A DNA stretch of 34,431 nt from positions 6,404 to 40,834 of the forward strand of contig UBXV01000032.1 of NCBI GenBank assembly GCA_900469625.1, given 5' to 3'. A model generated the notes under the pieces. It did not search any database. It worked only from the letters and a program-made list of their open reading frames with translations, and had not been told where the DNA came from. The position numbers were made by a program, and so were the translations under genes. Numbering within the stretch: position 1 is the stretch's first letter; every line of letters starts with the position of its first letter. Positions 7,167 to 31,719 of this stretch are shown piece after piece. The stretch is from Hyphomicrobiales bacterium (GTDB taxonomy: Bacteria; Pseudomonadota; Alphaproteobacteria; Rhizobiales; Rhizobiaceae).

Positions 7167-7194
7167 CCCCGGTCCCGCGCACAGGAGAAAAGCC

Positions 7195-7875
7195 ATGACG
7201 AATGTCGCAAACTTCAACGGCGCCCGCCCGGTCATCGATCCCGATGATGCGGTGATGCTTCTTATCGACCATCAGAGCGGCCTTTTCCAGACCGTCAACG
7301 ACATGCCGATGCCGAAGCTGCGCGCCCACGCAGCAGCACTTGCCAGCATGGCGACGCTGGCGAAGATGCCGGTGATCACCACGGCATCGGTGCCGCAGGG
7401 CCCGAACGGGCCGCTGATCCCGGAAATCCACGCGAACGCGCCGCATGCCAAGTATGTCGCCCGTCGCGGCGAGATCAATGCCTGGGACAATCCGGACTTC
7501 GTCGCAGCCGTCAAGGCGACCGGGCGCAAGACGCTGATCATCGCCGGCACCATCACCAGCGTCTGCATGGCGTTCCCGGCGATCAGTGCCGCGCACGAGG
7601 GCTACAAGGTCTTTGCCGTCGTCGATGCGTCCGGCACCTATTCGAAGATGGCGCAGGAGATCACGCTTGCCCGCGTCGTTCAGGCAGGCGTCGTCCCGAT
7701 GGACACGGCGGCCGTCGCCTCCGAGCTGCAGCGCACCTGGCACCGCGATGACGCCCAGCAATGGGCCGAGATCTACACCAAGATCTTCCCGGAGTATCAG
7801 CTGCTGATCGAAAGCTACCTGAAGGCCCAGCAGGTCGAGAAGGACCAGGAACAGCTGGATTCGGCCCGCGCCTGA
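7195..7875 (+). CDS. YcaC-like cysteine hydrolase, second copy
   Basis: A 226-aa paralogue of the preceding protein with the same architecture. The Asp lies in LLIDHQSGL (about residue 25), PRxG becomes [13 protein letters not shown], and the Cys lies in [18 protein letters not shown] (about residue 125). It has a longer N-terminus and a charged C-terminal tail (QQVEKDQEQ). AGGAG lies 9 bases before the ATG. The pair probably arose by tandem duplication; the differing loops around the nucleophile suggest different substrates. A strong hairpin at 7915-7947 ends the operon. Confidence 0.9.
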
Positions 7876-7914
7876 ACAGGCACCTGCGGGGCGCTTCAGC
7901 GCCTATTGAAATCG

Positions 7915-7947
7915 ACGTCGCCGGCTGGAAAGTCCTGCCGGCGACGT
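7915..7947. terminator. Bidirectional terminator hairpin
   Basis: ACGTCGCCGGC (7915-7925) pairs with GCCGGCGACGT (7937-7947) in an 11-bp perfect stem with an 11-base loop. It lies between the convergent ends of the second YcaC-like gene and the amidase gene, with short T-runs on both sides. Confidence 0.8.
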
Positions 7948-7951
7948 TTCG

Positions 7952-9211
7952 TTACTTGAGGTCGATCTGCAGCACCGTCTGCAACAGAACGTCGGCGCCG
8001 CGCGCGCATTCCTCCGGCGATGTGTATTCCGCCTCGTTGTGCGACAGGCCATCCTTCGACGGCACGAAGATCATCGCCGTCGGGCAGATACCGGCGAGAT
8101 GGGCGGCGTCGTGGCCGGCGCCGGAGACCATCTCGATGGCGGAATGGCCGAGCGCTCCGGCGCTGGCGCGGACCGCATCGACAATGAGGAGATCGAAGAC
8201 GACCGGCTGCTTCGACCAGATGCGGTCGAGCACGATCCGGGCGTCCAGCGCGTCGATCGCCTGTTCAAGCGCAGCTTGCATCTGGTCGAGCCCGGTATCG
8301 GAGGGGTGGCGCATGTCGATCTGCAAGTGCACGGAACCCGGCACGACATTGCGCGAATTCGGGCCGACGGCGGCAAAGCCTGTCGTGCCGACGCCGGGCG
8401 AGTGCCGGCGGGCGATATCGCGCACGGCAAGCACGATCTGCGAGGCTGCGACCAGCGCGTCATCGCGCTGATCCATGGGCGTACTGCCGGCATGGGCTTC
8501 CGTCCCGGTGATCGTCACATCGAACCAGCGCACACCCTGGACGCCTGTAACGATGCCTATTTCGGTCGCGGCCGCTTCCAGAAGCGGGCCCTGTTCGATG
8601 TGCAATTCGACATAGGCGGCAAAACCGACATGGCCAGGCAGAATTTCGCCGCGATAGCCGATTGCTTCGAGTGCCGCCCGAACGGTGGTTCCATCCCGGT
8701 CCTGAACCGCCTCGATCTTCGATAGCGGCGATGCGCCGGCAAAGACGCCAGACCCCATCATCGCCGGGGAGAAGCGCGAACCTTCCTCGTTCGTCCAGTT
8801 GATGACTGTAAGATCATGGCGCAGCACCGTCGCCGTTTCCTTCAGCGTCCGGATCAGCTCGACGCCGGCCAGAACTCCGAGAATGCCGTCGAACCGGCCA
8901 CCTTGCGGCTGGGTATCGAGATGGCTCCCGACTGCGATCGGCGGCAGGGACCGGTCTTCTCCGGGATAGGTGGCAAAAATGTTGCCGATCTGGTCGGTTT
9001 CGACGGTGCAGCCGAGCGAGCGGCATTCGTCGACGAACCAGTCGCGAACCTGCCGGTCCTCTTCCGTCAATGTCAGCCGGGTGACGCCGCCCTTGTCGGC
9101 GCCGCCGAAGCTGGCGGTCGAAACGATATCGGCCCAGAGGCGATCGCCGTTGATGGCGGGCATGTTGTCGCCCGAAGTCGGTGCACGGCGTGCCTGTCCC
9201 GTCGCGGTCAT
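7952..9211 (-). CDS. atcC: N-carbamoyl-L-amino acid amidohydrolase (probable N-carbamoyl-L-cysteine amidase)
   Basis: A 419-aa M20-family zinc amidase of the hydantoinase/carbamoylase group. Metal-ligand motifs are seen in order: GSHLDTQPQGGRFDG (His and Asp ligands), NWTNEEGSRF (Glu pair), ELHIEQGPLLE, and a final NEAEYT near the end (SHNEAEYTSPE). A dimerisation domain lies in the middle (GTEAHAGSTPMDQRDDAL). The length matches the family. Its start overlaps the stop of the ATC hydrolase gene by 4 bases. In the known Pseudomonas pathway, an amidase of this type turns N-carbamoyl-L-cysteine into L-cysteine, so context favours that substrate. The family assignment is firm; the substrate is inferred. 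Confidence 0.85.
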   Translation of the reverse strand: MTATGQARRAPTSGDNMPAINGDRLWADIVSTASFGGADKGGVTRLTLTEEDRQVRDWFVDECRSLGCTVETDQIGNIFATYPGEDRSLPPIAVGSHLDTQPQGGRFDGILGVLAGVELIRTLKETATVLRHDLTVINWTNEEGSRFSPAMMGSGVFAGASPLSKIEAVQDRDGTTVRAALEAIGYRGEILPGHVGFAAYVELHIEQGPLLEAAATEIGIVTGVQGVRWFDVTITGTEAHAGSTPMDQRDDALVAASQIVLAVRDIARRHSPGVGTTGFAAVGPNSRNVVPGSVHLQIDMRHPSDTGLDQMQAALEQAIDALDARIVLDRIWSKQPVVFDLLIVDAVRASAGALGHSAIEMVSGAGHDAAHLAGICPTAMIFVPSKDGLSHNEAEYTSPEECARGADVLLQTVLQIDLK

Positions 9212-9747
9212 TTCTGCTCTCCGGCGGCCGGGTCAGCGTTCAGGCGGTAGCGGAAATCGCAATGGGAGGCGCCCTGCATCACCGTCTGTGTGCGCTCCAG
9301 CGTAATGCGCGGATCGTAGCCGGTGCAGAACACGCCGTCACGGTTGCAGGAAAGCAGATGTCCGATATGGCCGAGGCCCATCTCGCGATAAGTCTCGGCG
9401 TATCGACAGCGCTTGACGTTGTAGTGGAATTCCTCGTCGGTCGCCTTGGTCACCTCGATCGTCAGGGCGTCGTCCTGCGTCCAGAGGTCCTGCAGCTCCT
9501 GGAACGTGCGCAGATTGGTGCCGCCGGGTGTCTTGGCTGCAAATGTCCGGCCCGCCTCGACGGCAGCCTGGCTGACCGCCTTGTCGAGGATCGCCTGGGC
9601 GCGTGCCTCGCCGATCTCCTCGCGCATCGCCTCATAGATTGGCGCGATGATGCCCGCCTCGATGCGCCGGCGCGCGAGAATGCCCAGTTCGCCGTCCATC
9701 GCTGCCCGCGATGTCGCGGCCTCTGCCGCCTTGTCCTGATCCGTCAT
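9208..9747 (-). CDS. atcB: L-2-amino-thiazoline-4-carboxylic acid hydrolase
   Basis: A 179-aa protein of the ATC hydrolase family. Relatives open the thiazoline ring of L-2-amino-thiazoline-4-carboxylate to give N-carbamoyl-L-cysteine. Family-like segments seen are DEEFHYNVKRCRYAETYREM (about residues 107-126), IGHLLSCNRDGVF and GASHCDFRYRL near the C-terminus, all with conserved Cys and His. AGGA lies 7 bases before the ATG at 9747. The last four bases overlap the amidase start (ATGA), so the two enzymes form a translationally coupled pair for a two-step conversion of ATC to cysteine. Other family members may act on other heterocycles. Confidence 0.85.
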   Translation of the reverse strand: MTDQDKAAEAATSRAAMDGELGILARRRIEAGIIAPIYEAMREEIGEARAQAILDKAVSQAAVEAGRTFAAKTPGGTNLRTFQELQDLWTQDDALTIEVTKATDEEFHYNVKRCRYAETYREMGLGHIGHLLSCNRDGVFCTGYDPRITLERTQTVMQGASHCDFRYRLNADPAAGEQK

Positions 9748-10102
9748 GAGATATCCTGCCTCCCTGTCCAACAGTTGGTTGGTATGACTGCGGCAAAGGA
9801 TACACCGCGGCAGCAGGCCTCGTGTTGCAAATCCGTGCCATTCGCAAGGGTGGTCGTGCAAATATTTCGCGCCTTGCGTCCCTTCTTGCGGAATTATTCT
9901 TGTGGGACGCCGGCCGGGCGCGCCACGTGTGGGCGGCACTGGCGGTTGGGGCGATGAAGACAGTCGGTCGATGCCGCTTGAAACGTGGGCATGATGCCCC
10001 GTCGCGACCGCTCGCTGACGCGCCGCCATCGGCGCAGGCATGCCCTGCGAATGCGCCTGAATCCGTTGTGTGCAAACGCTGCCGCAACCGTGCGCGCAGG
10101 CG
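9748..10102. promoter_or_regulatory. 355-bp intergenic region with palindrome upstream of the ATC operon
   Basis: No convincing gene is present; the frames across it are low-complexity or lack ribosome sites. It must hold the promoter of the ATC hydrolase-amidase pair. CCAACAGTTGG (9768-9778) is a palindrome with 5-bp arms starting 20 bases upstream of the ATG, well placed for a repressor. No clear terminator for the upstream BatD gene was found. Confidence 0.4.
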
Positions 10103-11464
10103 CTAACGGTCGATCGGCATATCGGCCTCGAGTGCAGGATTGAGATCGGGCAACGTGTTTCCGGACGGTGGTTCCAAGTCCGCGGTCTCATCGAGCCAGC
10201 GCCGCCTCGCCTTGCCCAGACCCGCCTTGAGCGGCAGGAGGTTCGGCTTTGTCGCGGTCTGCGCGACGCGATAGAGCGACTGCTGGTGGGCGGCAAAGGC
10301 CGCTTTCGTCCCGGGGTCTGCGAAGCGGTCGAGCCATGTCGTCAACGGCACATTTCCCGTCCTGCGCGACCAGGCGTCGAGCGCCGCTTCGAGACGCTTT
10401 GGATCACCGCTTCCGCATCCCTCGTCGACGCGCCGGAAAGCCGTCGCTTCGGATTGCTGCCTCAGCGTTCGCATCTCCTCGAACCATGCCTGAATGCGGC
10501 CGGCGAAAACGGCGGCGAAGTGGATCAAGAGCGCCAGGCCTATGACGGCCAGGCCAGCGGCGACCCACCATTGCCAGTCGACTGCCTGCCTCTCGGGCGG
10601 GGGAGGCGGCGGTGCGAGCGCGGTCGTGGTGGCCGGTGCTGCGGCAACCGACACCTTGACCGCCGGCGCTTCGGTGGTTTGCTGTTTGCCGCTCGACGGG
10701 TCGAACCATTGCAGGGTTATCGCAGGCAGCGTGTAGTCCCCAGGCTTTCCAAAGACATACGTTGCGGTGTCCTTGCGGATGCCGCCTCGCAGGTCGCCTT
10801 CCTCCGACTTGTCCTCGGAGAGAACGGGGTCGTGGACATAGACCTGGACATCGGCCGGAGCGTCGAAGGACGGCTCCGGGATCATCATCGCAGCCAGTCT
10901 GGCCGCATTGACGGTGACGGTGCGCACGAGGGCGTCACCGGCGACAAGGCTCGTCAGATCACGATCGAAGGTCTGGACGATCGTCACCTTGGCGGCCGTC
11001 ACGCCCGCCTGGGCACCGGTGCTGCCGGGAACTGCGGCGACCGTCAGGCGCAAACGCGGCAGCGTCACCCGACCTTGCGTGGTCTCGCCCGGAACGGCCG
11101 CGTAGCCGAACGGGATCTCGACCGGTGGCAAGGTGTAGTCGCCGGCGGCCTGCGGTGTCACGATGTAGGTCTTGCGGATACCGGAGAAGCCGACGCCATC
11201 GACGGTCTCGTTGAGATTGAGGCCGCGATCGTCGGGCATCGTCACCACGGTGCTGGGCAGGTCGAACAGCGGAAACTGCGGCGGCGAAAGGAAGAAATTC
11301 GGCACGAAAACGTCGACATCGATCTCCACCTGCTGCCCGGCGTAGATCGTACCCTTGGTCGCAATCGTTGCGCGGGCGAAAGGATCGGCGGCCACAGCGC
11401 CAGTTGCCAGCGACAGCAAGGAGACGATCAACGCGACGAGAATGGGCCAGATGCGAGCGGTCAT
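10103..11464 (-). CDS. BatD-like membrane protein
   Basis: A 453-aa protein, last of the MoxR/Bat operon. It has a Sec signal peptide at about residues 1-25 (cut near AVAADP), a long periplasmic region of two or more Ig-like beta domains (for example YIVTPQAAGDYTLPPVEIPF), and a proline run (PPPPPPE) before a single membrane anchor at about 310-330. The cytoplasmic C-terminal tail is about 120 residues. This is the layout of BatD/oxygen-tolerance proteins. The ATG overlaps the BatB stop as ATGA. In Bacteroides and Francisella-type systems such proteins act in envelope stress tolerance; the role here is inferred. Confidence 0.85.
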   Translation of the reverse strand: MTARIWPILVALIVSLLSLATGAVAADPFARATIATKGTIYAGQQVEIDVDVFVPNFFLSPPQFPLFDLPSTVVTMPDDRGLNLNETVDGVGFSGIRKTYIVTPQAAGDYTLPPVEIPFGYAAVPGETTQGRVTLPRLRLTVAAVPGSTGAQAGVTAAKVTIVQTFDRDLTSLVAGDALVRTVTVNAARLAAMMIPEPSFDAPADVQVYVHDPVLSEDKSEEGDLRGGIRKDTATYVFGKPGDYTLPAITLQWFDPSSGKQQTTEAPAVKVSVAAAPATTTALAPPPPPPERQAVDWQWWVAAGLAVIGLALLIHFAAVFAGRIQAWFEEMRTLRQQSEATAFRRVDEGCGSGDPKRLEAALDAWSRRTGNVPLTTWLDRFADPGTKAAFAAHQQSLYRVAQTATKPNLLPLKAGLGKARRRWLDETADLEPPSGNTLPDLNPALEADMPIDR

Positions 11465-13032
11465 GGCTTCGTGTCCTTGGCTTCGATCGCGAATTTGCGC
11501 GCCAGCAATTCTGCGGGCGACACCTGGATGTTGCGCATCCACATGTCGGCGGTCTGTGCGCCGCCAGGAACCGTACCCTCCTTGCCCTTCTTGCCCTTCT
11601 CGTCGAATTGCACCTCGTCCGGGTCGATGCCGGCCTGCTCCTGCTGGGCGTCCTGTTCCAGTTTGTCCTTGTCGGCCTTGCGTTTTTCAGCCACCTCCAG
11701 GTTCTGTTTGGCCTCAGGCCAGTCCGCCCGACGTTTGAGGGCCTGCTGGTAGGCCGCAATCGCCTCTTCCGCCTTGTCGAGATGCATCAGCGCATTGCCC
11801 TGATTGTAGTAGCTCTCGGCCGTATCAGCCTGCGCGAAGGCGTCGATGGCGTCCTGGAAGCGCCCGATGCGATAGAGTGCTATGCCTTGCCAGGCCGGAT
11901 CGGTGAAGTCGTCGGCGGCTGCCTGGAAATCGCCACGCTGGACGGCGCGCAGTCCCTGCTGGTCCGGGGTGAACCACAGATCGGCAAAGCTGTTGTCCGC
12001 CGCTTCCGCTTTTCCCCCCGACAACACCGTGCCGATGGCGAGCACGAAAACGGCCCAGCGCACGGACCAGCCGCGCCGGAACCAGAGCGCGGCCATCAGC
12101 GCAACTGGGATGGTCAACCACCAGCCGGCATCATACCAGCGCGTCAGACCGTCTGCTGTCTTCTGTGCGAAGCTCGTCTGGATCCGCCTGACGATCCAGC
12201 GCACGTCGGCATCGTCGGGCGTGACGGTTGCCACCTCGGCCTTCGAGGCAGACTGCAGGGCTTTCAGTGCGTCGACATCGAGTTTGGCGCGAACGCGCGC
12301 GCCGGTCGCGTCGGTGAGGAACTGGCCGTCGGCCGTCTTTACCGGGCCACCGTCGGCGGTGCCGATACCGAGCACCATCAGATCGTTTCGCCCCTGGTAG
12401 CCGGCAAAGGCGTCGAAGGCCGTGCGCTCGACGCCGTCGGTCATGAACAGGATCGTGCCAGGGACGGTCTCGCTGGAAAGCGCGGCTTCCACCACTTGCA
12501 GCGCCTTGCCGGTGTCCCGGCCGGTCACCGGCATGATGCCGGGCGACAGGGCCGCCAGATAGGTCTTGGTCAGGTTGGCATCGTCGGTGAGCGGCAGCAC
12601 CATGTGGGCGCTGCCGGCATAGGCAAAGAGCGCCGTGCGTGCGCCTTTGCGCATCGAAAGAATGTCCTGCACCTTGAGCTTGGCGCGCTCCAGGCGCGTC
12701 GGCGAGACGTCGGTGGCGTTCATCGTCTCGGTCAGGTCGATGGCGATCGCCAGAGGCGCGGTGTCCTCGACAAAGGGCGGCTTTTCGCGCTGCCACGTCG
12801 GCCCGGCAGCAGCGATCGCGGCAACCGCGATCAGGGCTGCCGTGAGATGAACGGGGTGGAACCAGTGTTTTCCGCCCTTTTCGATCAGCAGATGATCGAG
12901 AAGATGCGGCGCGATCATGCCTCGCCACTGCGCGCGCACGTCGGTGCGCCGGCCGATCAGGACGACAAGCAGCGGCGCGGCCAGCAACGCGAGCAGCCAA
13001 AGAGGACGCAGGAAATGGAAATCGGCGATCAT
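11461..13032 (-). CDS. BatB/BatC-type fusion: VWA domain plus TPR
   Basis: A 523-aa membrane protein. Two N-terminal membrane segments (about residues 10-28 and 60-78) precede a von Willebrand A domain, and two more near 310-350 precede a TPR region (about 365-450, GNALMHLDKAEEAIAAYQQA). The tail is highly charged and Lys/Glu-rich. It thus joins what are separate BatB (VWA) and BatC (TPR) proteins elsewhere. The metal-ion-dependent adhesion site reads DLTET (99-103), with Thr at both positions where DxSxS has Ser, so metal binding may be altered. The start at 13032 overlaps the BatA stop (ATGA). The frame is open far upstream, but that extension lies in the BatA gene. Confidence 0.88.
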   Translation of the reverse strand: MIADFHFLRPLWLLALLAAPLLVVLIGRRTDVRAQWRGMIAPHLLDHLLIEKGGKHWFHPVHLTAALIAVAAIAAAGPTWQREKPPFVEDTAPLAIAIDLTETMNATDVSPTRLERAKLKVQDILSMRKGARTALFAYAGSAHMVLPLTDDANLTKTYLAALSPGIMPVTGRDTGKALQVVEAALSSETVPGTILFMTDGVERTAFDAFAGYQGRNDLMVLGIGTADGGPVKTADGQFLTDATGARVRAKLDVDALKALQSASKAEVATVTPDDADVRWIVRRIQTSFAQKTADGLTRWYDAGWWLTIPVALMAALWFRRGWSVRWAVFVLAIGTVLSGGKAEAADNSFADLWFTPDQQGLRAVQRGDFQAAADDFTDPAWQGIALYRIGRFQDAIDAFAQADTAESYYNQGNALMHLDKAEEAIAAYQQALKRRADWPEAKQNLEVAEKRKADKDKLEQDAQQEQAGIDPDEVQFDEKGKKGKEGTVPGGAQTADMWMRNIQVSPAELLARKFAIEAKDTKP

Positions 13033-23796: not shown

Positions 23797-25158
23797 TCAG
23801 GCAGCGTCGATGGCCTGCTTCAGGTCGGCAATGATGTCGTCGGGATGCTCGATGCCGATCGACAGCCTGACGTAACCGGGCGTAACGCCTGTTCTCAGCT
23901 GGTCCGCTTCAGACAGCTGCGAGTGGGTGGTGGTGGCCGGATGGATCGCAAGCGATCGCGCATCACCGATGTTGGCGACGTGATAAAGCAGCTGCAGCGC
24001 ATCGATAAAGCGACGCCCGGCGTCGCGCCCGTCCTTCAGTTCGAAACCGATCAATGCGCCGTAATGGCCGTTGCGCAGGTACTTTTCGTTCCGCGCCTTG
24101 GCGTCTCCCTCCTGGAATTTCGGGAAGATGACACGCGCGACCTTCGGGTGCGATCGCAGGAAATCGGCAACCTTGATGGCGTTCTCGCTGTGCTGGCGGA
24201 TGCGCAAGGGCAGCGTTTCGAGCCCCTGAATGAACTGGAAGACATTCTGTGGGCTGATGGCCGCGCCAAGATCGCGCAAAAGCACGGCGCGGGCGCGCAG
24301 GATGTAGGGATGAAAGTCGATGGCGGCCGCCTTTTCCAACCAGGTCTTGCCCTGATAGCTTGCGTCGGGCTCATGCAGGTTGGGATGGCGCCTTGCATGG
24401 TCGTGCCACGGGAAGGTGCCGCTGTCGATGATCGCGCCGCCGATCGAGGTGCCATGTCCGCCGATGTATTTCGTGGTCGAATAGACCACGATCGCAGCAC
24501 CGTGATCGAACGGGCGGATCGTCAAGGGTGCCGCGGTGTTGTCGATGACGAGCGGAATGCCGAACCGGCGACCGATTTCGGCGACGTCGGCGATCGGAAA
24601 GACTTCGAGGCTCGGGTTGGGAAGCGATTCCGCGTAATAGGCGCGTGTCCTGTCGTCGGTCGCCTTTGCAAAGGCCTCGGGGTCGGACGCGTCGACGAAA
24701 CGCACCTCGATGCCGAAGCTTTTCAACGTCGATGCAAACAGCGCCCAGGTGCCGCCATAAAGACCGGCGGCGCTGACGATATTGTCGCCGGAGCGGGCGA
24801 GATTGAGCAAGGCATAGGCTGATGCCGCCTGACCGGAGCCGAGCGCCAGCGCGGCGGCGCCGCCCTCGATCTCGGCAAGCCGCTGTTCGAATGCATCCTG
24901 CGTCGGATTGGAGACGCGCGTGTAGAGATGGCCGGCAGCCTCCAGAACAAACAGCTTGTCGGCGCCGTCGGTGCCGGGCAACTGGTAAGACGTGGTCTGG
25001 TAGATCGGCACGGCGACGGCGCCGCTCACCGGGTCGAAACGGTAGCTGCCACCATGAAGGGCCAGCGTTTCAGGATGAAGCGGTCGCGATCTGTCGCGCA
25101 GGCCGCTCGGTGTCTTGATTTCGACTGCAGGTTCCTCAGGCTTTTGATGGATCGTCAT
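23797..25158 (-). CDS. metY: O-acetylhomoserine sulfhydrylase (MetY)
   Basis: A 453-aa PLP enzyme of the Cys/Met metabolism family. It makes homocysteine (or methionine) from O-acetylhomoserine and sulfide (or methanethiol). Seen are YTRVSNPTQDAFEQRLAEIE (about residues 79-98), the cofactor-loop ALGSGQAASAY, DNTAAPL, and the PLP lysine in YSTTKYIGGHG. The C-terminus SIGIEHPDDIIADLKQAI is typical. The length exceeds that of MetZ, and the first 30 residues are a charged extension. The gene lies 54 bases downstream of a 2OG-Fe(II) oxygenase gene and is probably co-transcribed, so the oxygenase may release a sulfur compound for it. Confidence 0.93.
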   Translation of the reverse strand: MTIHQKPEEPAVEIKTPSGLRDRSRPLHPETLALHGGSYRFDPVSGAVAVPIYQTTSYQLPGTDGADKLFVLEAAGHLYTRVSNPTQDAFEQRLAEIEGGAAALALGSGQAASAYALLNLARSGDNIVSAAGLYGGTWALFASTLKSFGIEVRFVDASDPEAFAKATDDRTRAYYAESLPNPSLEVFPIADVAEIGRRFGIPLVIDNTAAPLTIRPFDHGAAIVVYSTTKYIGGHGTSIGGAIIDSGTFPWHDHARRHPNLHEPDASYQGKTWLEKAAAIDFHPYILRARAVLLRDLGAAISPQNVFQFIQGLETLPLRIRQHSENAIKVADFLRSHPKVARVIFPKFQEGDAKARNEKYLRNGHYGALIGFELKDGRDAGRRFIDALQLLYHVANIGDARSLAIHPATTTHSQLSEADQLRTGVTPGYVRLSIGIEHPDDIIADLKQAIDAA

Positions 25159-25212
25159 CGAATGTTCCTTCAGCTTTTGAGTGGCAGCTCTTGCGTGGTC
25201 GCGGTGGAAAAG

Positions 25213-26250
25213 TCAGGCCGGCACGGGTACCTTCAGCTGCTCGACCAGATCGGCATGGTGCGTGGCGGCGACATCGGGGTGTGATCTCAGACGCGACTTC
25301 AGCACGTTGCGGCCGACCTCGTGGAACAAGGGATTGAGCGGGTCCTGCGTCACGCCGCGGACCTCCGTGGCAAGCGCAGGCGGCAGATCCAGGACCGGAA
25401 TGGTGGATGCGAGATTGGCGCCGAGGAAGAAGGCGACCGATCGGCGATCCCCGCCCGCGGGCGGCGTGACCACGCGGTGGATGTTGGCAAGCAGGTAGCC
25501 ATTCGACGTGAGTTCCAGCAATTCGCCGACATTGACGACGAAGGTTCCGCGCTTCGGCGGCGCATCGATCCAGCCGCCCCTGCCGTCGTCGACCTGCAGT
25601 CCGCCGACTTCATCCTGAAGCAGGATGGTGACGAAGCCGCCATCCTTGTGGGCGCCAACCCCCTGGTCGCTCTCGGTCTTGTCGCGGCCGGGATAGCGGA
25701 TGATCTTCAAAAGCTGGTTCGGGCCGTCGCGATAGATCGGCTCGAAGACGTCCGCGCGCTGACCGAGCGCCTCGGCGAAGACCTCGATCAGGCGGATACC
25801 AAGTCCGGTCACCGCTTCGATCCAGGCAAGGATGGCCGGCTTCAATTCGGGCAGGGCGTCCGGAAACTGGTTGGGGCCGACAAGCCGCTTCCACGGGGCG
25901 TCGTCAGGCTTGACCTCGACCGACGCGCGCTCCGGGCCGAAATCGACCTGCTCGCGCCAGTCCTGGGTACCGCGGGTATATTCGAGGCCGGCGCGGTTGT
26001 AGCCGCGGAAATGCGGCGACTTGCGCATTTCGATCGCCAGCTTGTCTGCCTCCGGCAGGCTGAAGAACCGTCGGGACAGATCGAGGACGCCATCGATCTG
26101 CTCTTGCGGAATGCCATGGCCTTCGAGGTAGAAGAAGCCGACCGAGCGGGCGACGGAACGCAGCTCTTCAAGTGCGGCCGCCCGCTCGGGGTGGCCAGCC
26201 GCGAAGCGCTTTAGATCGAGGATGGGCAAGGATGAGTTGGTGTCGGTCAT
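25213..26250 (-). CDS. 2-oxoglutarate/Fe(II) oxygenase, isopenicillin N synthase family
   Basis: A 345-aa non-haem iron oxygenase. The N-terminal DIOX_N domain (about residues 8-125) has GFFYLEGHGIP and RRFFSLP. The iron ligands are H201 and D203 in GVGAHKDGG and H258 in NIHRVV, and the 2-oxoglutarate anchor is RRS at 269-271. The length fits the family. The ATG at 26250 with GGGAG is preferred; a longer frame to 26289 is possible. It heads an operon with metY. That pairing suggests oxidation of an organosulfur substrate, but the family is broad and the substrate is not visible. Confidence 0.9.
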   Translation of the reverse strand: MTDTNSSLPILDLKRFAAGHPERAAALEELRSVARSVGFFYLEGHGIPQEQIDGVLDLSRRFFSLPEADKLAIEMRKSPHFRGYNRAGLEYTRGTQDWREQVDFGPERASVEVKPDDAPWKRLVGPNQFPDALPELKPAILAWIEAVTGLGIRLIEVFAEALGQRADVFEPIYRDGPNQLLKIIRYPGRDKTESDQGVGAHKDGGFVTILLQDEVGGLQVDDGRGGWIDAPPKRGTFVVNVGELLELTSNGYLLANIHRVVTPPAGGDRRSVAFFLGANLASTIPVLDLPPALATEVRGVTQDPLNPLFHEVGRNVLKSRLRSHPDVAATHHADLVEQLKVPVPA

Positions 26251-26617
26251 AAGGGCTCCCTTCATCGACCGCGCGCAGAGGGCCGGCATGCCCGCTTATC
26301 GGGCGAGCCGTCCGGATATCGCTGGCCGCTTTGCTGTCAGAAAGCCTACCGGGTGCGTGCTTTTAATCAATATTGTCTATTGAAAAGATAGACTAAATAT
26401 CCGGCCGCGCGCGCAGATGCGTTCGGGCAACGACCTTAAGACGAGAATTTCCATCCCAACGGGTCCGTCGGTCATCGCCCGTTACAACTGGGCCGACGAC
26501 CGCGTGACTGCTGAGACTGAATTTGATCCAAAGGGGAAAGCCGTTAGGCAGGCCGGCGGATGGACGGGACTTTCCGCGGCCCGGATGAGGCGGGAGACCC
26601 TATAGTCAACGAAAAAC
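26251..26617. promoter_or_regulatory. Promoter region of the oxygenase-metY operon with palindrome
   Basis: This stretch has no credible gene; a 62-codon plus-strand frame at 26417-26605 lacks a ribosome site. GTCTAT (26375-26380) and ATAGAC (26388-26393) form a palindrome around TGAAAAG in a strongly AT-rich block (about 26361-26400). That is 125-143 bases upstream of the oxygenase start, a plausible place for a LysR- or AraC-type activator and promoter. Confidence 0.5.
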
Positions 26618-26688: not shown

Positions 26689-26925
26689 TCAGCAGTTGCC
26701 GAGGCTGGCGCGAGTCATGAGTTCGTTGGTCAGCAGGGCTGTCCGGTCGCCGCATTCCTCGACTTCCTTGAGCAAGGCGGCGAGCGCCAGTTCGAGGCAA
26801 TACTGGACACCTTCGACATTCAGGGTGCGCGACGAGTCACGTGCATACGTAACCAGACGAGCCAGCGCCAGCAGCTCCTTTTCCTTGTCATCGGCTTCAA
26901 AGGACATGGCGATCGAAGATTGCAT
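26689..26925 (-). CDS. Small helical protein of unknown function
   Basis: A 78-aa protein I do not recognise. It is mostly helical (ADDKEKELLALARLVTYARD; YCLELALAALLKEVEECGD), with no signal peptide. The ATG at 26925 has GGGGAAA upstream; an in-frame ATG at 26970 would add 15 residues but has no ribosome site. It follows tfuA by 120 bases. It has its own -10 candidate (TATGAT on the minus strand, 26976-26981) and a Pho-box-like direct repeat, and its own terminator, so it is probably a separate unit rather than part of the RiPP operon. Confidence 0.7.
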   Translation of the reverse strand: MQSSIAMSFEADDKEKELLALARLVTYARDSSRTLNVEGVQYCLELALAALLKEVEECGDRTALLTNELMTRASLGNC

Positions 26926-27002: not shown

Positions 27003-27021
27003 CGTGACACGAGCGTGACAC
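27003..27021 (-). promoter_or_regulatory. Pho-box-like direct repeat
   Basis: On the minus strand GTGTCACG occurs twice with an 11-base pitch (GTGTCAC-N4-GTGTCAC). This is the architecture of PhoB boxes (CTGTCAT-N4-CTGTCAT), with two changed positions per half. TATGAT at 26976-26981 could be the -10, but the 22-base gap is about one helical turn longer than in classic sites. It precedes the 78-aa protein gene and lies 25 bases after tfuA. Confidence 0.45.
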
Positions 27022-27045: not shown

Positions 27046-27771
27046 TCAGGATGAAGCGACAAGTTGATTGAGCAATCGCTTCCACAGGCTTGTCGAATTG
27101 AATGCCCAGTCCTGGGCCGGCATCGCCCGCAAGGCTGGGGCGTTGCGCAGGATTTCGAGCAATTCCAGGGCGTCCAGCCGCTTCTGGTTGATCGTTCCGC
27201 CAGTCAGAAGTGCCAGCAGTCGCCGGGTCTCCGCGTCTTGCGCATGCGTGGTTCGGGCGACGATCGCGCTCCAGGTCCGCTGCTTGTAAAAAAGCGCCTT
27301 GGCTGCCTGCAAAAGTTGCAAGGCAGCCGCTGCGTCGATCAACTGCCGCTGGCGCAGGTCCTCCAGAGTTGCAACGACATTGACCAGCGGAAGGGTCAGC
27401 GGCAGATGCCCGAGCTCAGCCGGGCCATGCAGAAGGGCGACATCGGCGTCGTCCTCAAGCTCGCCGGCCGCATATTGGCCATAGATCCGGCCGACGCCGA
27501 TCATGCCGAATGTTGCACATTCGGCGGCGCGAAGCGCGCCCATGCTTGCAGCGCCGTAGACGTGCACGCCTACCGACAGGGCAAACAGGATCTCCTTGTG
27601 CCAAACGGGGGCAACCTGTTCGAAATGACCGTCGACAAGCCCGATGGCGGTCGCGCCCTCCTGGGTCGCCCGCAGGATGTCGCCCAGTTCGGCCGGGGGG
27701 CGAAGGACGATGTCGTCGCCGACCAGAGTTCGCGCATCGGGCAATGTCGGGCCGGCAAAGAGGACTTTCAT
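27046..27771 (-). CDS. tfuA: TfuA-like protein, partner of YcaO
   Basis: A 241-aa protein of the TfuA family, named from the trifolitoxin genes of Rhizobium. The core motif VYGAASMGALRAAECATFGM (71-90) and VGRIYGQY (93-100) are clear, after an N-terminal Rossmann-like start MKVLFAGPTLPDA. TfuA proteins assist YcaO enzymes in making peptide thioamides, probably by delivering sulfur. The start overlaps the YcaO stop by 4 bases (ATGA), so the two are made together. The C-terminal half (about 120-241) is helical and less conserved. Confidence 0.9.
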   Translation of the reverse strand: MKVLFAGPTLPDARTLVGDDIVLRPPAELGDILRATQEGATAIGLVDGHFEQVAPVWHKEILFALSVGVHVYGAASMGALRAAECATFGMIGVGRIYGQYAAGELEDDADVALLHGPAELGHLPLTLPLVNVVATLEDLRQRQLIDAAAALQLLQAAKALFYKQRTWSAIVARTTHAQDAETRRLLALLTGGTINQKRLDALELLEILRNAPALRAMPAQDWAFNSTSLWKRLLNQLVASS

Positions 27772-29012
27772 CCGAGCTCCAGTGCGTGTGACAGGGCCCG
27801 GTTGCCGAAGCGTCGCTTGCGCGCGCCGTCGGGGTTCTCGAGTTCGGGGACGAAAATCTTGACCACGGAAAACGGCAGCGGCTCTGAGAGAAGGGGCACG
27901 GCAACGGCGGTCCCGATGCCCGCACGCCTCAGGGCCGCAACAACATGGTCGAGCAGCGCACCGGTGCCGGCACCGGCGAAAGCGCAAGCCGCCGGGTTGC
28001 GATCTCCGGGCGTCGCCACGAACAATTGCTGCGTTTCACGCGGCAGCTTGCGCGTAAACGTCTCTGGAAAGACATCGTCGCGCGCGCCGCTGATATAGGT
28101 GAGGCGCGATTGTGCCGCCTCGGTCACGGCCCTGATCGCGGCGCGGCGCGGATCCGGATGAGCGCCGTGACCGACGGTAACGTCATGGTACCGTGGCTCT
28201 TTCGCACCGAGAATGTCCGCGTCGGCGATGATCGCCGACAGGCAGGGGATGCCGATGTCACTGGTCATGTCGAAGAGGCGGAATGTCAGGCCGGCCGCTT
28301 CTATGCGGCCGGTCATGTCGTCGATGACGGGATCGTTGAACAGCCGGGCACCGACGCAGCTCTTGAGGCGCGCCGCCAGTGGTCGAAGCCGCCAAAGGGT
28401 TTCGGCATCACGCTCGATGCGCTCCAGCAGACCGTGCAGGATAGCCTCCTGCTCGGTGTTGCCGGAGGCAAGCCCGTCCGACGACTGCCAGTAGCGGCAT
28501 TGCTCAAGCGTCCGGTCGAGCGATGCGGCGTGAAAGGGTATGAACGTTGTGTGTCGATCGAAAAGATCGTGGCCGCGCAGCCACGTCGTGGGTTCGTCAT
28601 CGCCAAGATCGTCCATTCCGGCTGCGATCAGCCCGGGCAGGCCGAACGCCCGCTCGCCCTTGTTCAGAAGTGCGCGCCGCGTCTCTGTTTGCACCGGTGC
28701 CGAAGGCGTGCAGGCGACGGCACGCTCCAGGGCTTCCATCGCCGCCGACACCTTTGCGTCGATATCGGTGATGCCCTTGCCCTGGTTGATGACGATCGAT
28801 CGTGCATTCGGCGAAACCGCATTCCAGACGGGTATGCCGATGCTGTCGAGCCCGGTCAGGCGGGCAAGTCTGCTGACGCCGAAAACGGGCAAGAGACCGG
28901 CTATCCGCGCGAAGGTTTCCTCGGGCGCGCACACACGGTCGGAGTATACGTCGGGATTGTCCTTGACCGGGCTGCCTTCGCGCGCCCGGTCCGCCTCATG
29001 CCTCGTCGTCAT
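27768..29012 (-). CDS. YcaO-domain peptide-backbone-modifying enzyme
   Basis: A 414-aa YcaO protein. These enzymes use ATP to activate backbone amides, giving azolines, amidines or, with TfuA, thioamides. The ATP-binding motifs are intact: E93/E96/R97 in AAMEALERAV, NTEQEAILHGLLERIERDA (185-203), and GAHPDPRRAAIRAVTEAAQS (283-302). The C-terminus is not the PxPxP type of azoline cyclodehydratases, and no E1-like partner or dehydrogenase is nearby, which favours thioamidation. The ATG is 10 bases after a 76-aa peptide gene and has only a weak ribosome site, suggesting coupling to it. Substrate and product are inferred. Confidence 0.92.
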   Translation of the reverse strand: MTTRHEADRAREGSPVKDNPDVYSDRVCAPEETFARIAGLLPVFGVSRLARLTGLDSIGIPVWNAVSPNARSIVINQGKGITDIDAKVSAAMEALERAVACTPSAPVQTETRRALLNKGERAFGLPGLIAAGMDDLGDDEPTTWLRGHDLFDRHTTFIPFHAASLDRTLEQCRYWQSSDGLASGNTEQEAILHGLLERIERDAETLWRLRPLAARLKSCVGARLFNDPVIDDMTGRIEAAGLTFRLFDMTSDIGIPCLSAIIADADILGAKEPRYHDVTVGHGAHPDPRRAAIRAVTEAAQSRLTYISGARDDVFPETFTRKLPRETQQLFVATPGDRNPAACAFAGAGTGALLDHVVAALRRAGIGTAVAVPLLSEPLPFSVVKIFVPELENPDGARKRRFGNRALSHALELG

Positions 29013-29022
29013 CGGCCGTGAG

Positions 29023-29253
29023 TTAGCCGTCCATGAAGCCGCCGGATACCGAGCCGGCCGAATTGGCGCGCACGGCGAAGTTCACGCCCTTGACCACCGT
29101 CGCGCCGGCGTTTCTGTGCTCGTTGGCCGAAGCCAGTGCGCCGGTGAGCGGGGCTGTGATGGGTGTGACGGTTCCCGCCGCGAGATCCGCGAGCCACAGG
29201 CCGTCGTCACCCTCAACGCCAAATACAACGACCTTCGCAGTCTGTTCCGTCAT
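29023..29253 (-). CDS. Putative RiPP precursor peptide
   Basis: A 76-aa peptide without Cys and without a signal peptide. The N-terminal part (about residues 1-45) looks like a leader: MTEQTAKVVVFGVEGDDG, then WLADLAAGTVTPITAPLTG. The C-terminal part (about 50-76, ATVVKGVNFAVRANSAGSV and SGGFMDG) is Gly/Ser/Ala-rich and could be the core. A good ribosome site (AAGGGGA, 6 bases) decides the ATG at 29253; the frame stays open to 29367, but that part overlaps the upstream gene. It sits 35 bases after the SARP-type regulator gene and 10 bases before YcaO. Precursor status is inferred from size, position and partners; no homologue is recalled. Confidence 0.75.
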   Translation of the reverse strand: MTEQTAKVVVFGVEGDDGLWLADLAAGTVTPITAPLTGALASANEHRNAGATVVKGVNFAVRANSAGSVSGGFMDG

Positions 29254-29288
29254 GATGTTCCCCTTATCCCTCATGTGATTGTGATGGT

Positions 29289-31160
29289 TCAGAAACCTGC
29301 CTTGCGCAGGCCTTCGCCGTAATGGGTTTTCTGCCATTCCTCGCGGAACGGAACGATTGCCATCCATTTTTCCAGGTTGAAGTCCGGATGGACGTCAAAC
29401 GTCTTACGCACGTATTGGCTCGCCTTCTTGCGATTGCCGAGCATGCCCCAGCTGGCGGCCGCGAGACGGTCCGCAGGCGTTGGATCGCGCATTCGTTCTA
29501 TATACGCAAGGGCGTTTTCGTATTGCGCTAGCGAGTAGCAGGCCCCGGCGGCAGTCCAGAAATACTCGTCGGGAGCGATCGGATTGAGGTTAATCGCGGC
29601 TTCGATCTTCTGCAGGCCGCCATCCGGGCGCGAGGCTTGCACCAGAGTGTCGGCGAAGCTTGCAATCACGTTGGCGTGCTGTGGGCTCAGCGCTTCGGCC
29701 TTTTGGTGAAACTCGATGCTTTCGTCGAACTGCCGGCAGTAGAGCTTGACCACGCCGAGTTCGCGATAACCGGCAGCAAGCGTGTCGTCGATGGCGATCG
29801 CGTCGCGCGCATGCTGTTCGGCGAGAGCCAGCAGCTCGCTGTCGCCGCGCGCCGTCAAAAGCCATTCGACAAAGTAACTGCGGGCCAGTCCGCTCATCGC
29901 CGGCGCCAGATCGGCATTCTGGCCGAGTGCATCGCGGAAGCTCTTCCTGGCGCGCCGGACCTCCGGCAAATTCAGTTGCTTGAGGAAGCGCTGGCCGAGC
30001 AGATAGCTGCGATAGGAGCCGGCGTTGCTCTCGTAGGTCTTGCGCATGCTCTCGTTGCGTTCGACCTGGCTCGCAATGGCGAAGGCGATCTGGCGTGCGA
30101 TCTCCTGGCGCGAGCGCATCAGGCCGTGGTCGTCGAGCGTGAAGCGATCGGCCCAGATCACCTCGTCATTGGCAAAGAAGATCAGCTGCGTGAACAGCGT
30201 CTGCCGGTTACCCTCGTTGGTCAGCCGGGTGTCGAGAATGTAACTGATGGCGTGCTGTTCGTAGGTGCTCGCCTTGTCCGCCTGCAGGCTGATTTGTGCC
30301 GCCGTGTAGGGCGCAATGACCGACACCGAGCGAAGGGCGCACAGGCCGATCGTAACGTCCTCGATCAGCGAATGGGCAAACAGCGTGGCGGAAGTGTCGG
30401 CGTTGCCGGCGCCGGGCGGCAACAGGACGACGCGCGGCGGCCGCGTGTCGCCGCCGGGCTCGGGCGGAGGGGCGCTTGTCAGGGCGGACGCCGGCGCGGC
30501 CTTGGCGGACAAGGAGGCAAGCTCGATGCCTGGCAGAAGCCGGGGCTCGTATTGCCGCCCCTCCAGCGCCAGCACGGTCTTCAGGATCTTGCGAACCTCG
30601 TCGTCTTCAGGGTTCTTCTCCAGAAGCTTGACCGCCGCGGACTTGACGAGCTTGCGATCCGGGCCGGTTGCAGCGTCGGCCGCGCTGATCAGGCTTTCGC
30701 GCAGCAGCCCGGTGTGATCGGCGCGCTGCTGTGCTACCCAGTCGCGAAGGGCCGGGCCCTGCGATTTCAGGTCCTTGATGAAATCGTCGCGGAATGTCTC
30801 GATCGCCCAATGGAACCGCGACAGGGGATCCTGAGGGACATTGCTCAGGAGGTCGTCGAGGTCGCTCGAAAGTGCGTCCGTCTCCAGCCGAATGGATGTT
30901 TGCGAGAAGCTGAGGAAGGTGTGGCCGAGTTCTTCCTGCCGCGATGTGATGCGGGAGATGGTCTTGCGCAGATTGACGAAGGCCTGGCTTGGCATGACGT
31001 CGCTCCAAAGCAGCTTGGCGACGTCGTTGCGCGATTGCTCGCGGTGGCCACCGGCGATTGCCTGGGCGAGGATGAGCAGTCCCTTTTCCGGGAAAGCGAC
31101 ATCGCACTCGTCGTCATCGACGAGTCGCAACCGCCCGAGGGTCTGCAACCTGAATTTCAT
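29289..31160 (-). CDS. SARP-like regulator with TolB-like and TPR regions
   Basis: A 623-aa cytoplasmic protein. Residues 1-90 are a winged-helix domain like those of SARP/OmpR-type activators (MKFRLQTLGRLRLVDDDECD; RNDVAKLLWSDVMPSQAFVN, then LRKTISRI), followed by a bacterial transcriptional activator-like helical region to about 205. A Pro-rich linker (about 220-240) leads to a TolB-like domain (VVLLPPGAGNADTSATLFAH, IADRFT-type end WADRFTLDD, about 245-360) and TPR helices (about 375-600). No cyclase domain is present. It lies 28 bases after the XRE gene and 35 bases before the peptide gene, so it is probably the in-operon activator of the peptide-YcaO-TfuA set. Confidence 0.85.
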   Translation of the reverse strand: MKFRLQTLGRLRLVDDDECDVAFPEKGLLILAQAIAGGHREQSRNDVAKLLWSDVMPSQAFVNLRKTISRITSRQEELGHTFLSFSQTSIRLETDALSSDLDDLLSNVPQDPLSRFHWAIETFRDDFIKDLKSQGPALRDWVAQQRADHTGLLRESLISAADAATGPDRKLVKSAAVKLLEKNPEDDEVRKILKTVLALEGRQYEPRLLPGIELASLSAKAAPASALTSAPPPEPGGDTRPPRVVLLPPGAGNADTSATLFAHSLIEDVTIGLCALRSVSVIAPYTAAQISLQADKASTYEQHAISYILDTRLTNEGNRQTLFTQLIFFANDEVIWADRFTLDDHGLMRSRQEIARQIAFAIASQVERNESMRKTYESNAGSYRSYLLGQRFLKQLNLPEVRRARKSFRDALGQNADLAPAMSGLARSYFVEWLLTARGDSELLALAEQHARDAIAIDDTLAAGYRELGVVKLYCRQFDESIEFHQKAEALSPQHANVIASFADTLVQASRPDGGLQKIEAAINLNPIAPDEYFWTAAGACYSLAQYENALAYIERMRDPTPADRLAAASWGMLGNRKKASQYVRKTFDVHPDFNLEKWMAIVPFREEWQKTHYGEGLRKAGF

Positions 31161-31188
31161 CTGTCTATCTCATTGGCAACCGGCGTGC

Positions 31189-31647
31189 CTATCCATGCAG
31201 GTCGGGCGCATGCGCCGAACTACTGTGAGCGACGATCGTTTCCGCTTCGGGCGTCTGCGCGACGGCCGCTACCAGCGAAATGATCTTCTTGCGCAGGACC
31301 GGGTCGGTGATCTTCAGGAAGGCGCGGTTGAGCGCAATGCCTTCCTTCGACGAAACGAAGGAGGAGATTTCGTTGGGTTCGCGCACATCGCCCAAGCCTG
31401 CCCGCGGTGCCGCGCCTTCTTCGCCTTCCTGGAAGAAGAAGCTCGGGTGAACGCCCAGCACATCGGCGATCGCCTGCAGCCGGCTGGCGCCGATGCGGTT
31501 GGTGCCTTTTTCGTATTTCTGGACCTGCTGGAAGGTGATCCCGAGGCCGTCAGCCAGCTTTTCCTGACTCAACCCGGCCATCAACCGACGCATCCTGACG
31601 CGGGAACCGACAAAGACATCAATCTGGCTGGGTGCTTTAGTGTTCAC
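31189..31647 (-). CDS. XRE-family regulator, PhrR/PraR-like
   Basis: A 152-aa repressor-type regulator. The helix-turn-helix spans about residues 12-70 (VGSRVRMRRLMAGLSQEKLA, then GITFQQVQKYEKGTNRIGAS), closely resembling rhizobial PhrR/PraR proteins, and is followed by VHPSFFFQE. The GTG at 31647 is chosen because GGAGGAA lies 7 bases upstream; an ATG at 31719 would extend it through non-family sequence. It is the first gene of the apparent peptide operon. PhrR/PraR relatives regulate stress and quorum-linked genes in rhizobia, so it may gate the operon. Confidence 0.9.
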   Translation of the reverse strand: MNTKAPSQIDVFVGSRVRMRRLMAGLSQEKLADGLGITFQQVQKYEKGTNRIGASRLQAIADVLGVHPSFFFQEGEEGAAPRAGLGDVREPNEISSFVSSKEGIALNRAFLKITDPVLRKKIISLVAAVAQTPEAETIVAHSSSAHAPDLHG

Positions 31648-31692
31648 GGGTAGTTCCTCCGCATGTCTGCATGACCAAATCACACATATGAG

Positions 31693-31719
31693 TTTGCTCG
31701 AATAAATGACTCGATGCAA
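31693..31719. promoter_or_regulatory. Imperfect palindrome upstream of the XRE gene
   Basis: TTTGCTCGA (31693-31701) and TCGATGCAA (31711-31719) form an imperfect inverted repeat around a 9-base AT-rich centre, 46-72 bases upstream of the GTG start. The position suits an autoregulatory operator overlapping the operon promoter. No clear -35/-10 pair was fixed. Confidence 0.4.

What the first reader, a model, noticed from the sequence alone, without database searches (positions are those of the whole stretch)
27046..31647. Compact XRE-SARP/TPR-peptide-YcaO-TfuA operon, a candidate new thioamide RiPP system
A YcaO with intact ATP motifs overlaps a TfuA gene and follows a 76-aa peptide by 10 bases. 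Two regulators, PhrR-like XRE and SARP/TPR, are co-directional with gaps of only 28 and 35 bases. No exporter, protease, E1-like partner or dehydrogenase is present, so the product may stay in the cell or use general export. YcaO with TfuA is established for thioamidation; this regulator-rich minimal form in a rhizobium is not one I know.
Basis: partly seen in the sequence, partly recalled or inferred. Interest (0 to 1): 0.8.

Follow-up and report, generated by a model that had tools for sequence, protein, structure and literature searches.

The report
Regulator-coupled thioamide peptide operon in rhizobia
Soil and root-nodule bacteria of one order share a six-gene unit that appears to make a small chemically altered peptide beside its own gene switch, which looks more like a built-in signalling circuit than an antibiotic factory.

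Summary
The five-gene operon is real and exactly as described. It is no lone oddity: precursor and class-A YcaO fall in the same 43 of 297 family genomes, and the precursor reaches other families of the order. The peptide is RiPP-type: conserved leader, variable C-terminal core, in relatives up to seven copies of a core 4-mer. YcaO and TfuA look intact; thioamidation is untested.

That is SARP operator geometry. In five Ensifer-group genomes 13 of 14 exact boxes precede S6 or DUF6894-like genes.

Regulator-peptide pairs exist without adjacent YcaO-TfuA, and regulator-S6 units without peptide genes. Best reading: a thioamidated-peptide regulatory circuit; sensing of the peptide by the TPR part is inferred. 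Rival: bacteriocin with inducible immunity. Rhizobial TfuA clusters are in print; this architecture I did not find.

The parts
31691..31719 (-). Promoter-like motif TTGCAT-N17-CAAACT upstream of the XRE gene, shared with four orphan regulator-peptide loci
   Evidence: a loose form of it in 10 of 77 upstream regions (five of them this genus) against 25 of 4000 random windows; motif found after looking, weak
31189..31647 (-). XRE-family helix-turn-helix regulator, GTG start, 152 aa
   Evidence: upstream of SARP/TPR on the same strand in 51 of the 55 class-A loci (my count; one of them 0.7 kb off)
29289..31160 (-). SARP/TPR regulator, 623 aa: OmpR-type winged helix and BTAD, linker 208-238, alpha/beta part, TPR superhelix
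   Evidence: AF2 pLDDT 87.4; profile hit to AfsR SARP 8hvr_I E 7.3e-5; Foldseek TPR superhelices and CadC periplasmic domain 3ly7 E 2e-5
29023..29253 (-). RiPP-type precursor peptide, 76 aa: structured leader plus C-terminal core
   Evidence: 48 of 297 family genomes at E 0.01; 31 of 397 order genomes; of 289 class genomes only the own one; core repeats in relatives
29026..29046 (-). Predicted core, SGGFMDG
   Evidence: motif [SANG]GxPhi[DEH] in the last 32 residues of 47 of 51 class-A peptides, 7 of 7 orphans; shuffled last 20 residues 4.2% (pattern chosen after seeing the peptides)
27768..29012 (-). YcaO, 414 aa, ATP-site motifs intact
   Evidence: closest solved chain MJ1094 (6pe3) E 3.4e-36; no PxPxP in the last 15 residues of 71 of 71 YcaO rows
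27046..27771 (-). TfuA, 241 aa, 4-base overlap with YcaO
   Evidence: closest solved chain 6xp8 E 3.6e-26; Ser and Lys invariant in 66 of 66 rows
27003..27020 (-). SARP-type operator TGTCACG-N4-TGTCACG, 78 bp before S6; the only exact repeat of this pattern in the window
26689..26925 (-). S6: unnamed 78-aa small protein, predicted sixth gene of the unit
   Evidence: 53 of 55 class-A loci within 300 bp downstream; in all 43 class-A genomes; no Pfam, PADLOC or PHROG hit

Best explanation
The locus is a thioamide-type RiPP module wired to its own regulator. Shown by sequence: a precursor family with conserved leader and variable, sometimes repeated, C-terminal core lies directly after a SARP/TPR regulator gene and beside or with YcaO-TfuA; a SARP-type operator of 11-bp period sits directly before the sixth gene S6. 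Inferred, in falling confidence: (1) YcaO with TfuA converts backbone amides of the core into thioamides, perhaps near the core glycine (about 0.8); (2) the SARP/TPR protein activates the S6 promoter and, in the Ensifer group, promoters of DUF6894-like genes (about 0.75); (3) the leader is cut off by a general protease (about 0.6); (4) the matured peptide is the ligand of the TPR half of the regulator, so that the cell, and perhaps its neighbours, sense it and switch on S6 (about 0.5). One YcaO-TfuA pair would serve several regulator-peptide pairs in trans.
For: Precursor and class-A YcaO (E <= 1.4e-88) in the identical 43 of 297 genomes. Regulator followed by precursor at 49 of 52 class-A regulator places (E <= 2.5e-98), the other 3 followed by S6. 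Core repeats: a 4-mer repeated in the C-terminal part of 19 of 78 peptides, shuffled expectation 2.6. Seven orphan regulator-precursor pairs in six genomes, all six with YcaO and TfuA elsewhere, all seven keeping the core motif; five form one clade, SH-aLRT 100. In G029 and G677 the operon lost most of the regulator and the precursor but kept YcaO-TfuA-S6, while an orphan pair sits elsewhere. In four g46 genomes TfuA is outside the operon but still in the genome. Operator: exact in 47 of 73 regions, within one mismatch in 71 at period 11; periods 8-10 and 12-15 give 0-4 and 10-20. SARP residue 66 is K or Q in 28 of 28 regulators with the TGTCACG-type box and S in 13 of 13 with TGCAACG. XRE-SARP/TPR-S6 units without peptide genes keep the box. 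In five Ensifer-group genomes 13 of 14 exact boxes precede S6 (5) or DUF6894-like ORFs (8); 0 of 13 in 14 genomes without the class-A system.
Against: No peptide-regulator binding was computed or measured, and the coevolution test did not favour it: partial correlation of precursor distance with regulator given YcaO 0.27, with YcaO given regulator 0.25, overlapping intervals. All 13 regulators with the TGCAACG box lie in one 15-row clade (SH-aLRT 94), so the recognition-helix change may be a single event. Six of seven orphan pairs have no S6 hit in their stretch, and of the seven only L096 shows an exact box of the scanned pattern. Outside the Ensifer group none of 9 non-S6 boxes precedes a DUF6894-like ORF. 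Box to presumed -10 is about 19-21 bp (by eye), not the 8 bp given for Streptomyces SARP sites (PMC10936776 passages). No signal peptide is evident and no exporter is fixed, so cell-to-cell signalling is open. Repeated cores also fit a secreted bioactive product.
Confidence: 0.5

Rival explanations
1. A thioamidated bacteriocin against close relatives: the core is the toxin, the SARP/TPR protein senses it and induces S6, a small immunity protein. Units with regulator and S6 but no peptide genes are immune non-producers.
For: Small undescribed gene beside the cluster with what looks like inducible control; regulator-S6 units without peptide genes; cores vary and repeat; other rhizobial YcaO products, phazolicin and trifolitoxin, are antirhizobial (PMC9670871, part 1 of 2 read).
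Against: No exporter or toxin-type gene turned up as a fixed neighbour within 6.5 kb, though that method misses small ORFs; six of seven orphan regulator-precursor pairs have no S6 in their stretch; the same box stands before DUF6894-like genes elsewhere in the Ensifer group.
Confidence: 0.23
2. An ordinary RiPP cluster with a pathway activator: SARP/TPR answers some other signal and switches the cluster on; S6 helps maturation or export; the peptide is not its ligand.
For: SARPs are known as activators of biosynthetic clusters (PMC10936776 passages); the precursor lies next to both regulator and YcaO.
Against: The only exact repeat of the box pattern in the window lies before S6, not before the biosynthetic genes; regulator and S6 persist where the peptide genes are gone; regulator-precursor pairs persist without adjacent YcaO.
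Confidence: 0.18
3. The 76-aa protein is a stable small protein that keeps a thioamide in its tail, as McrA does, and no short product is released.
For: The leader folds with fair confidence in AF2 (mean pLDDT 82.7); YcaO and TfuA match the McrA-type NCBIfam models best, though far below their cut-offs.
Against: Tandem core repeats with variable linkers in relatives are hard to explain in a stable protein; the tail varies more than the leader.
Confidence: 0.06

Closest known systems
YcaO-TfuA thioamidated RiPPs (thioviridamide family, thiovarsolins, saalfelduracin)
   Same: Adjacent YcaO and TfuA, precursor gene nearby; repeated cores in thiovarsolins (recalled)
   Different: Leader without a family match, SARP/TPR gene directly before the precursor, orphan regulator-precursor pairs, S6 with SARP-type box
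Archaeal YcaO-TfuA that thioamidates McrA
   Same: Closest solved chains and best NCBIfam models for both enzymes
   Different: Neighbouring target is a small precursor, not an enzyme; scores 196.7 and 176.9 bits are below the curated 365 and 235.2
AfsR-afsS of Streptomyces
   Same: SARP with C-terminal TPR, box of two 11-bp direct repeats (PMC10936776 passages); that AfsS is small and adjacent is recalled
   Different: No NOD match in Pfam, an alpha/beta part like CadC's instead, precursor and YcaO-TfuA in the operon, different spacing of box and presumed -10
RRNPP peptide quorum sensing of Firmicutes
   Same: Propeptide gene adjacent to the gene of its intracellular receptor (PMC10075063, abstract start in search listing)
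   Different: SARP and not a fused XRE domain, Gram-negative hosts, precursor beside YcaO-TfuA, peptide binding untested
Rhizobial TfuA / thioamitide-like clusters found by genome mining
   Same: Over 500 Rhizobium TfuA clusters (PMC8120280) and thioamitide-related clans on Rhizobium plasmids of unknown role (PMC10434180)
   Different: The parts I read (sections 12 and 13 and passages of the first, passages of the second) give no such precursor family, S6, operator or orphan pairs; supplements were not open to me

Membership tests
YcaO-TfuA thioamidated RiPP | YcaO with intact ATP-site residues | tested here: met
   Ten S, E, R, D, Q positions of the three motifs invariant in 71 of 71 YcaO rows; aligns to 6pe3
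YcaO-TfuA thioamidated RiPP | TfuA partner with Ser and Lys | tested here: met
   HKE Lys and SMG Ser invariant in 66 of 66; that these are the catalytic pair mentioned in PMC13185837 is inferred
YcaO-TfuA thioamidated RiPP | Genetically linked precursor with leader and variable core | tested here: met
YcaO-TfuA thioamidated RiPP | Thioamide in the product | not testable with these tools
   needs mass spectrometry
SARP regulators | OmpR-type winged helix plus BTAD | tested here: met
   Profile positions 9-231 match AfsR 8hvr_I, E 7.3e-5
SARP regulators | Heptamer direct repeats with 11-bp period at target promoter | tested here: met
   47 of 73 exact, 71 of 73 within one mismatch (regions include near-copies); definition in PMC5930380 and PMC10936776 passages. 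Binding itself not tested
SARP regulators | 3' repeat 8 bp from the -10 element | tested here: not met
   About 19-21 bp to the conserved CTATGA/CTAAGA-like element in the Ensifer sites printed (by eye; the -10 itself is presumed)
RRNPP quorum sensing | Receptor gene adjacent to propeptide gene | tested here: met
   49 of 52 class-A regulator places
RRNPP quorum sensing | HTH of XRE type fused to TPR (recalled) | tested here: not met
   N-terminal SARP domain; XRE is a separate gene
RRNPP quorum sensing | Peptide binds the TPR domain | not tested
Thioamitides (thioviridamide-like) | Characteristic tailoring genes beside YcaO-TfuA (recalled) | tested here: inconclusive
   No further fixed neighbour was found in the 6.5 kb flanks of 49 loci, but flank ORFs were clustered, not annotated, and small ones can be missed

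The most novel reading that the evidence does not exclude
A peptide quorum-sensing-type system of Gram-negative bacteria in which the signal is a YcaO-TfuA-thioamidated RiPP, in some relatives released from multi-core precursors, and the receiver is a cytosolic SARP/TPR activator encoded directly upstream; receiver-only strains listen without making the signal, and one modification enzyme pair serves several signal-receiver pairs in the same cell.
Probability: 0.32. Interest if true: 0.92.

Novelty: new variant of a known kind. Interest (0 to 1): 0.72.

Why it matters
Mining papers list hundreds of rhizobial TfuA clusters, and one says that their role in nature is unknown and that the reason for their conservation needs research (PMC10434180 passage). 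This work gives many of them a common precursor family, a sixth partner gene, a predicted operator and a small candidate regulon, so that the role becomes directly testable with reporter fusions and gene removals in harmless soil bacteria. If the peptide is the regulator's ligand, it would be a modified-peptide signal in Gram-negative bacteria read by a SARP/TPR protein, and it would offer a fresh look at why tfuA, unlinked to the tfx genes, was needed for trifolitoxin (recalled; the 1996 paper was not held).
Full report
Check of the observation. Pfam names YcaO, TfuA, HTH and weak TPR; the 76-aa peptide has no family. The genome (G000, 6.54 Mb) shows one YcaO and one TfuA at the thresholds used. 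Close named relatives are Ensifer and Sinorhizobium.

Conservation. In 297 genomes of the family the peptide matches 48 at E <= 0.01 and YcaO matches 83 at E <= 1e-20. The 43 genomes with a class-A YcaO (E <= 1.4e-88, 44 places) are exactly the 43 with a class-A precursor (my comparison). The other five precursor hits are G149, G212 and G266, which hold a divergent sub-class with YcaO-TfuA, and G020 and G203, which had no regulator or YcaO beside the hit and are probably chance. With the precursor model, 31 of 397 genomes drawn from the order match (nine of them of the own family, the own genome counted) and, of 289 drawn from the class, only the own genome. In 60 plus 20 fetched stretches the order XRE, SARP/TPR, precursor, YcaO, TfuA recurs, mostly with YcaO/TfuA overlapping by four bases; XRE is missing or turned round in some.

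The peptide is a RiPP-type precursor. The leader (MAKVVVIGxxGxxxLWxADLxAGTV...) is conserved, the tail less so. The window ends SVSGGFMDG. Some relatives end in repeats: three GGYM, four FSGK, three GLHE, four GGFF, six GLFE, seven RSDA. An exact 4-mer repeats in the C-terminal part of 19 of 78 peptides, against 2.6 expected from shuffling and 4 of 78 in the first 56 residues; five of the 19 (L147-L151) are near-copies. The motif [SANG]GxPhi[DEH] is in the last 32 residues of 47 of 51 class-A peptides (misses L083, L091, L092, L097) and in none of their first 60; I chose it after seeing the peptides.

The enzymes. YcaO is nearest in solved structures to MJ1094 (E 3.4e-36) and TfuA to 6xp8 (E 3.6e-26). 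Ten ATP-site-type positions are invariant in 71 YcaO rows and a Lys and a Ser in 66 TfuA rows. A TfuA Ser-Lys pair that frees sulfide from ThiS-COSH is mentioned in PMC13185837 (passages). Whether these are those residues, and whether the window protein works so, is inference.

TfuA and the peptide act in trans, most likely. In four genomes of genus g46 TfuA is not in the operon but is elsewhere in the genome at 50-61% identity (in G202 2.7 kb from ycaO, on the other strand). Seven regulator-precursor pairs have no YcaO or TfuA beside them: two in the own genome (L061, L062), and L064, L084, L096, L102, L163. All six genomes have YcaO and TfuA elsewhere. All seven keep the core motif. Five form one clade (SH-aLRT 100) over two genera, the other two another. 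In G029 and G677 the operon has lost most of the regulator and the precursor, while YcaO, TfuA and S6 remain and an intact orphan pair sits elsewhere.

A sixth gene. Clustering of 514 flanking ORFs from 49 loci of 20 genera showed one small family just after TfuA in 8 loci of 6 genera; a profile made from it then found it far more often. S6 is a protein of about 64-78 aa, mostly 50-200 bp after TfuA, in 53 of 55 class-A loci within 300 bp and on the same strand; in the two misses it lies about 4 kb (L078) or 7 kb (L068; G054 C24:55186) further on. Its model, built from these loci, finds 47 of 297 genomes, among them all 43 class-A genomes and none of the five other precursor genomes. The four others are G097 and G190, with a further class of loci, and G219 and G273, which have XRE-SARP/TPR-S6 and no precursor or YcaO at the thresholds (TfuA not searched there beyond the stretch). 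A Rhizobium beringeri plasmid has the same three-gene unit (L126); the rest of that genome was not searched. Another flank cluster reached ten genera, but at scattered distances and strands; I did not identify it. No exporter, protease or tailoring gene emerged as fixed, but the ORF picking misses small genes.

The operator. Between TfuA and S6 the window has TGTCACG-CTCG-TGTCACG, the only exact repeat of that pattern in its 34 kb. In 73 regions around S6 starts (190 bases before to 60 within; near-copies included) an exact 7-mer repeat of 11-bp period is present in 47 and one with at most one mismatch in 71; at periods 8-10 and 12-15 the numbers are 0-4 and 10-20. SARP sites are heptamers with four-base spacers, one per helix turn (PMC5930380 and PMC10936776, passages). 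The heptamer is TGTCACG-like in many genera and TGCAACG in others. Of 57 regulators compared, 28 with the first type have K or Q at residue 66 and 13 with the second have S; residue 69 is S, A, T or E against R or W; 16 had neither exact type. All 13 of the second type lie in one clade of 15 (SH-aLRT 94), so this may be a single change.

The regulon. The exact pattern GTCACGN5GTCACG occurs three times in the own genome: before S6 and before two DUF6894-like genes (PF21834; one above, one below the cut-off). In five genomes of this genus there are 14 sites: five before S6, eight before DUF6894-like ORFs, one before neither; two of the eight were the seeds of that test. In ten other genomes with the regulator-S6 unit, 10 of 19 sites are before S6 (five, five) and 0 of the other 9 before a DUF6894-like ORF. 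In 14 genomes without the class-A system, 0 of 13 sites are before either.

The regulator. Its profile matches the AfsR SARP domain (E 7.3e-5); the AF2 model (pLDDT 87.4) has a winged helix, BTAD-type helices, a linker and a TPR superhelix, and Foldseek lists TPR superhelices and the CadC periplasmic domain. At 52 class-A regulator places in 297 genomes (E <= 2.5e-98) the precursor follows at 49 and S6 at the other three (the third, G029 C91, is read from the coordinates).

Mechanism. I take the unit to be a signal part (precursor, YcaO, TfuA) and a receiver part (XRE, SARP/TPR, S6). The regulator probably drives S6; the peptide most likely tunes the regulator. The last step rests on linkage, on orphan pairs and on receiver-only units; no binding was tested and the coevolution test was neutral. 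A bacteriocin with S6 as immunity protein explains nearly as much.

What is known. Malit et al. 2021 (PMC8120280; outline, passages, sections 12 and 13) report over 500 Rhizobium TfuA clusters and mention berninamycin-like and Nif11-like precursors there, not this leader, S6 or operator in the parts I read. PMC10434180 (passages) says thioamitide-like clans sit on Rhizobium plasmids with unknown role. Passages of PMC5589413, PMC4603692, PMC7136475 and PMC8692822 added nothing on this architecture. Searches for TfuA with YcaO and thioamide, with Rhizobium, with trifolitoxin, for YcaO with SARP or tetratricopeptide, thioamid- with Rhizobiales, YcaO with Sinorhizobium, TfuA with SARP and quorum sensing, and DUF6894 listed no paper that, by title and abstract start, treats it; subscription papers are mostly not held.

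Verdict. Real, conserved within the order, RiPP-like, and unusually tied to its regulator. A new variant of a known kind unless the sensing step is shown.

Noticed in passing
L124 (Rhizobium anhuiense T24 plasmid NZ_CP098801), 7200-12200: The trifolitoxin producer carries a distant second-class locus: SARP/TPR (30%), then YcaO (39%), TfuA (45%) and a weak S6-like ORF (E 0.004), with XRE on the other strand. One ATG start gives the regulator 650 aa and 72.9 kDa, the mass I recall for the original tfuA product; also the TfuA frame is open for 641 codons across ycaO. The founding tfuA annotation may need another look.
   Followed up: partly
L183, L184, L209-L211, L216-L218: Eight DUF6894-like genes of the Ensifer group carry the same 11-bp-period box as S6.
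   Followed up: yes
L109, L112, L114, L115: A divergent sub-class has two precursors per locus, the second in L109 and L115 with several AFSFDGRSDPSDR-like repeats, and no S6 hit.
   Followed up: partly
L175-L177: A further class of loci: SARP/TPR, YcaO, TfuA, an unknown protein of about 400 aa, then XRE and S6; in L175 and L176 an ORF of about 143 aa sits in the precursor position.
   Followed up: no
L117, L119: Short ORFs of 42-47 aa ending HAVRFR or HALKFR lie between SARP/TPR and YcaO in second-class loci; possible other precursors.
   Followed up: no
L074, L076-L078, L121: Sinorhizobium-like loci have no TfuA after YcaO; in the four genomes tested it is elsewhere in the genome. L121 (S. 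meliloti Ak57 plasmid) was not tested for TfuA elsewhere.
   Followed up: partly
L071 6080-6582: Two tandem precursors with different cores in one operon.
   Followed up: no
L123 (Rhizobium rhizogenes pC5.7c) 6992-12362: A class-A-like YcaO without annotated adjacent TfuA is followed by S6 and then by a second YcaO with TfuA.
   Followed up: no
window 23797-26289, minus strand: A Cys/Met-metabolism PLP enzyme and a 2OG-Fe(II) oxygenase lie downstream of S6 on the same strand; they did not show up as fixed neighbours in other loci.
   Followed up: no
window 31691-31719: Promoter-like TTGCAT-N17-CAAACT shared between this operon and orphan pairs (C55 in the own genome).
   Followed up: partly
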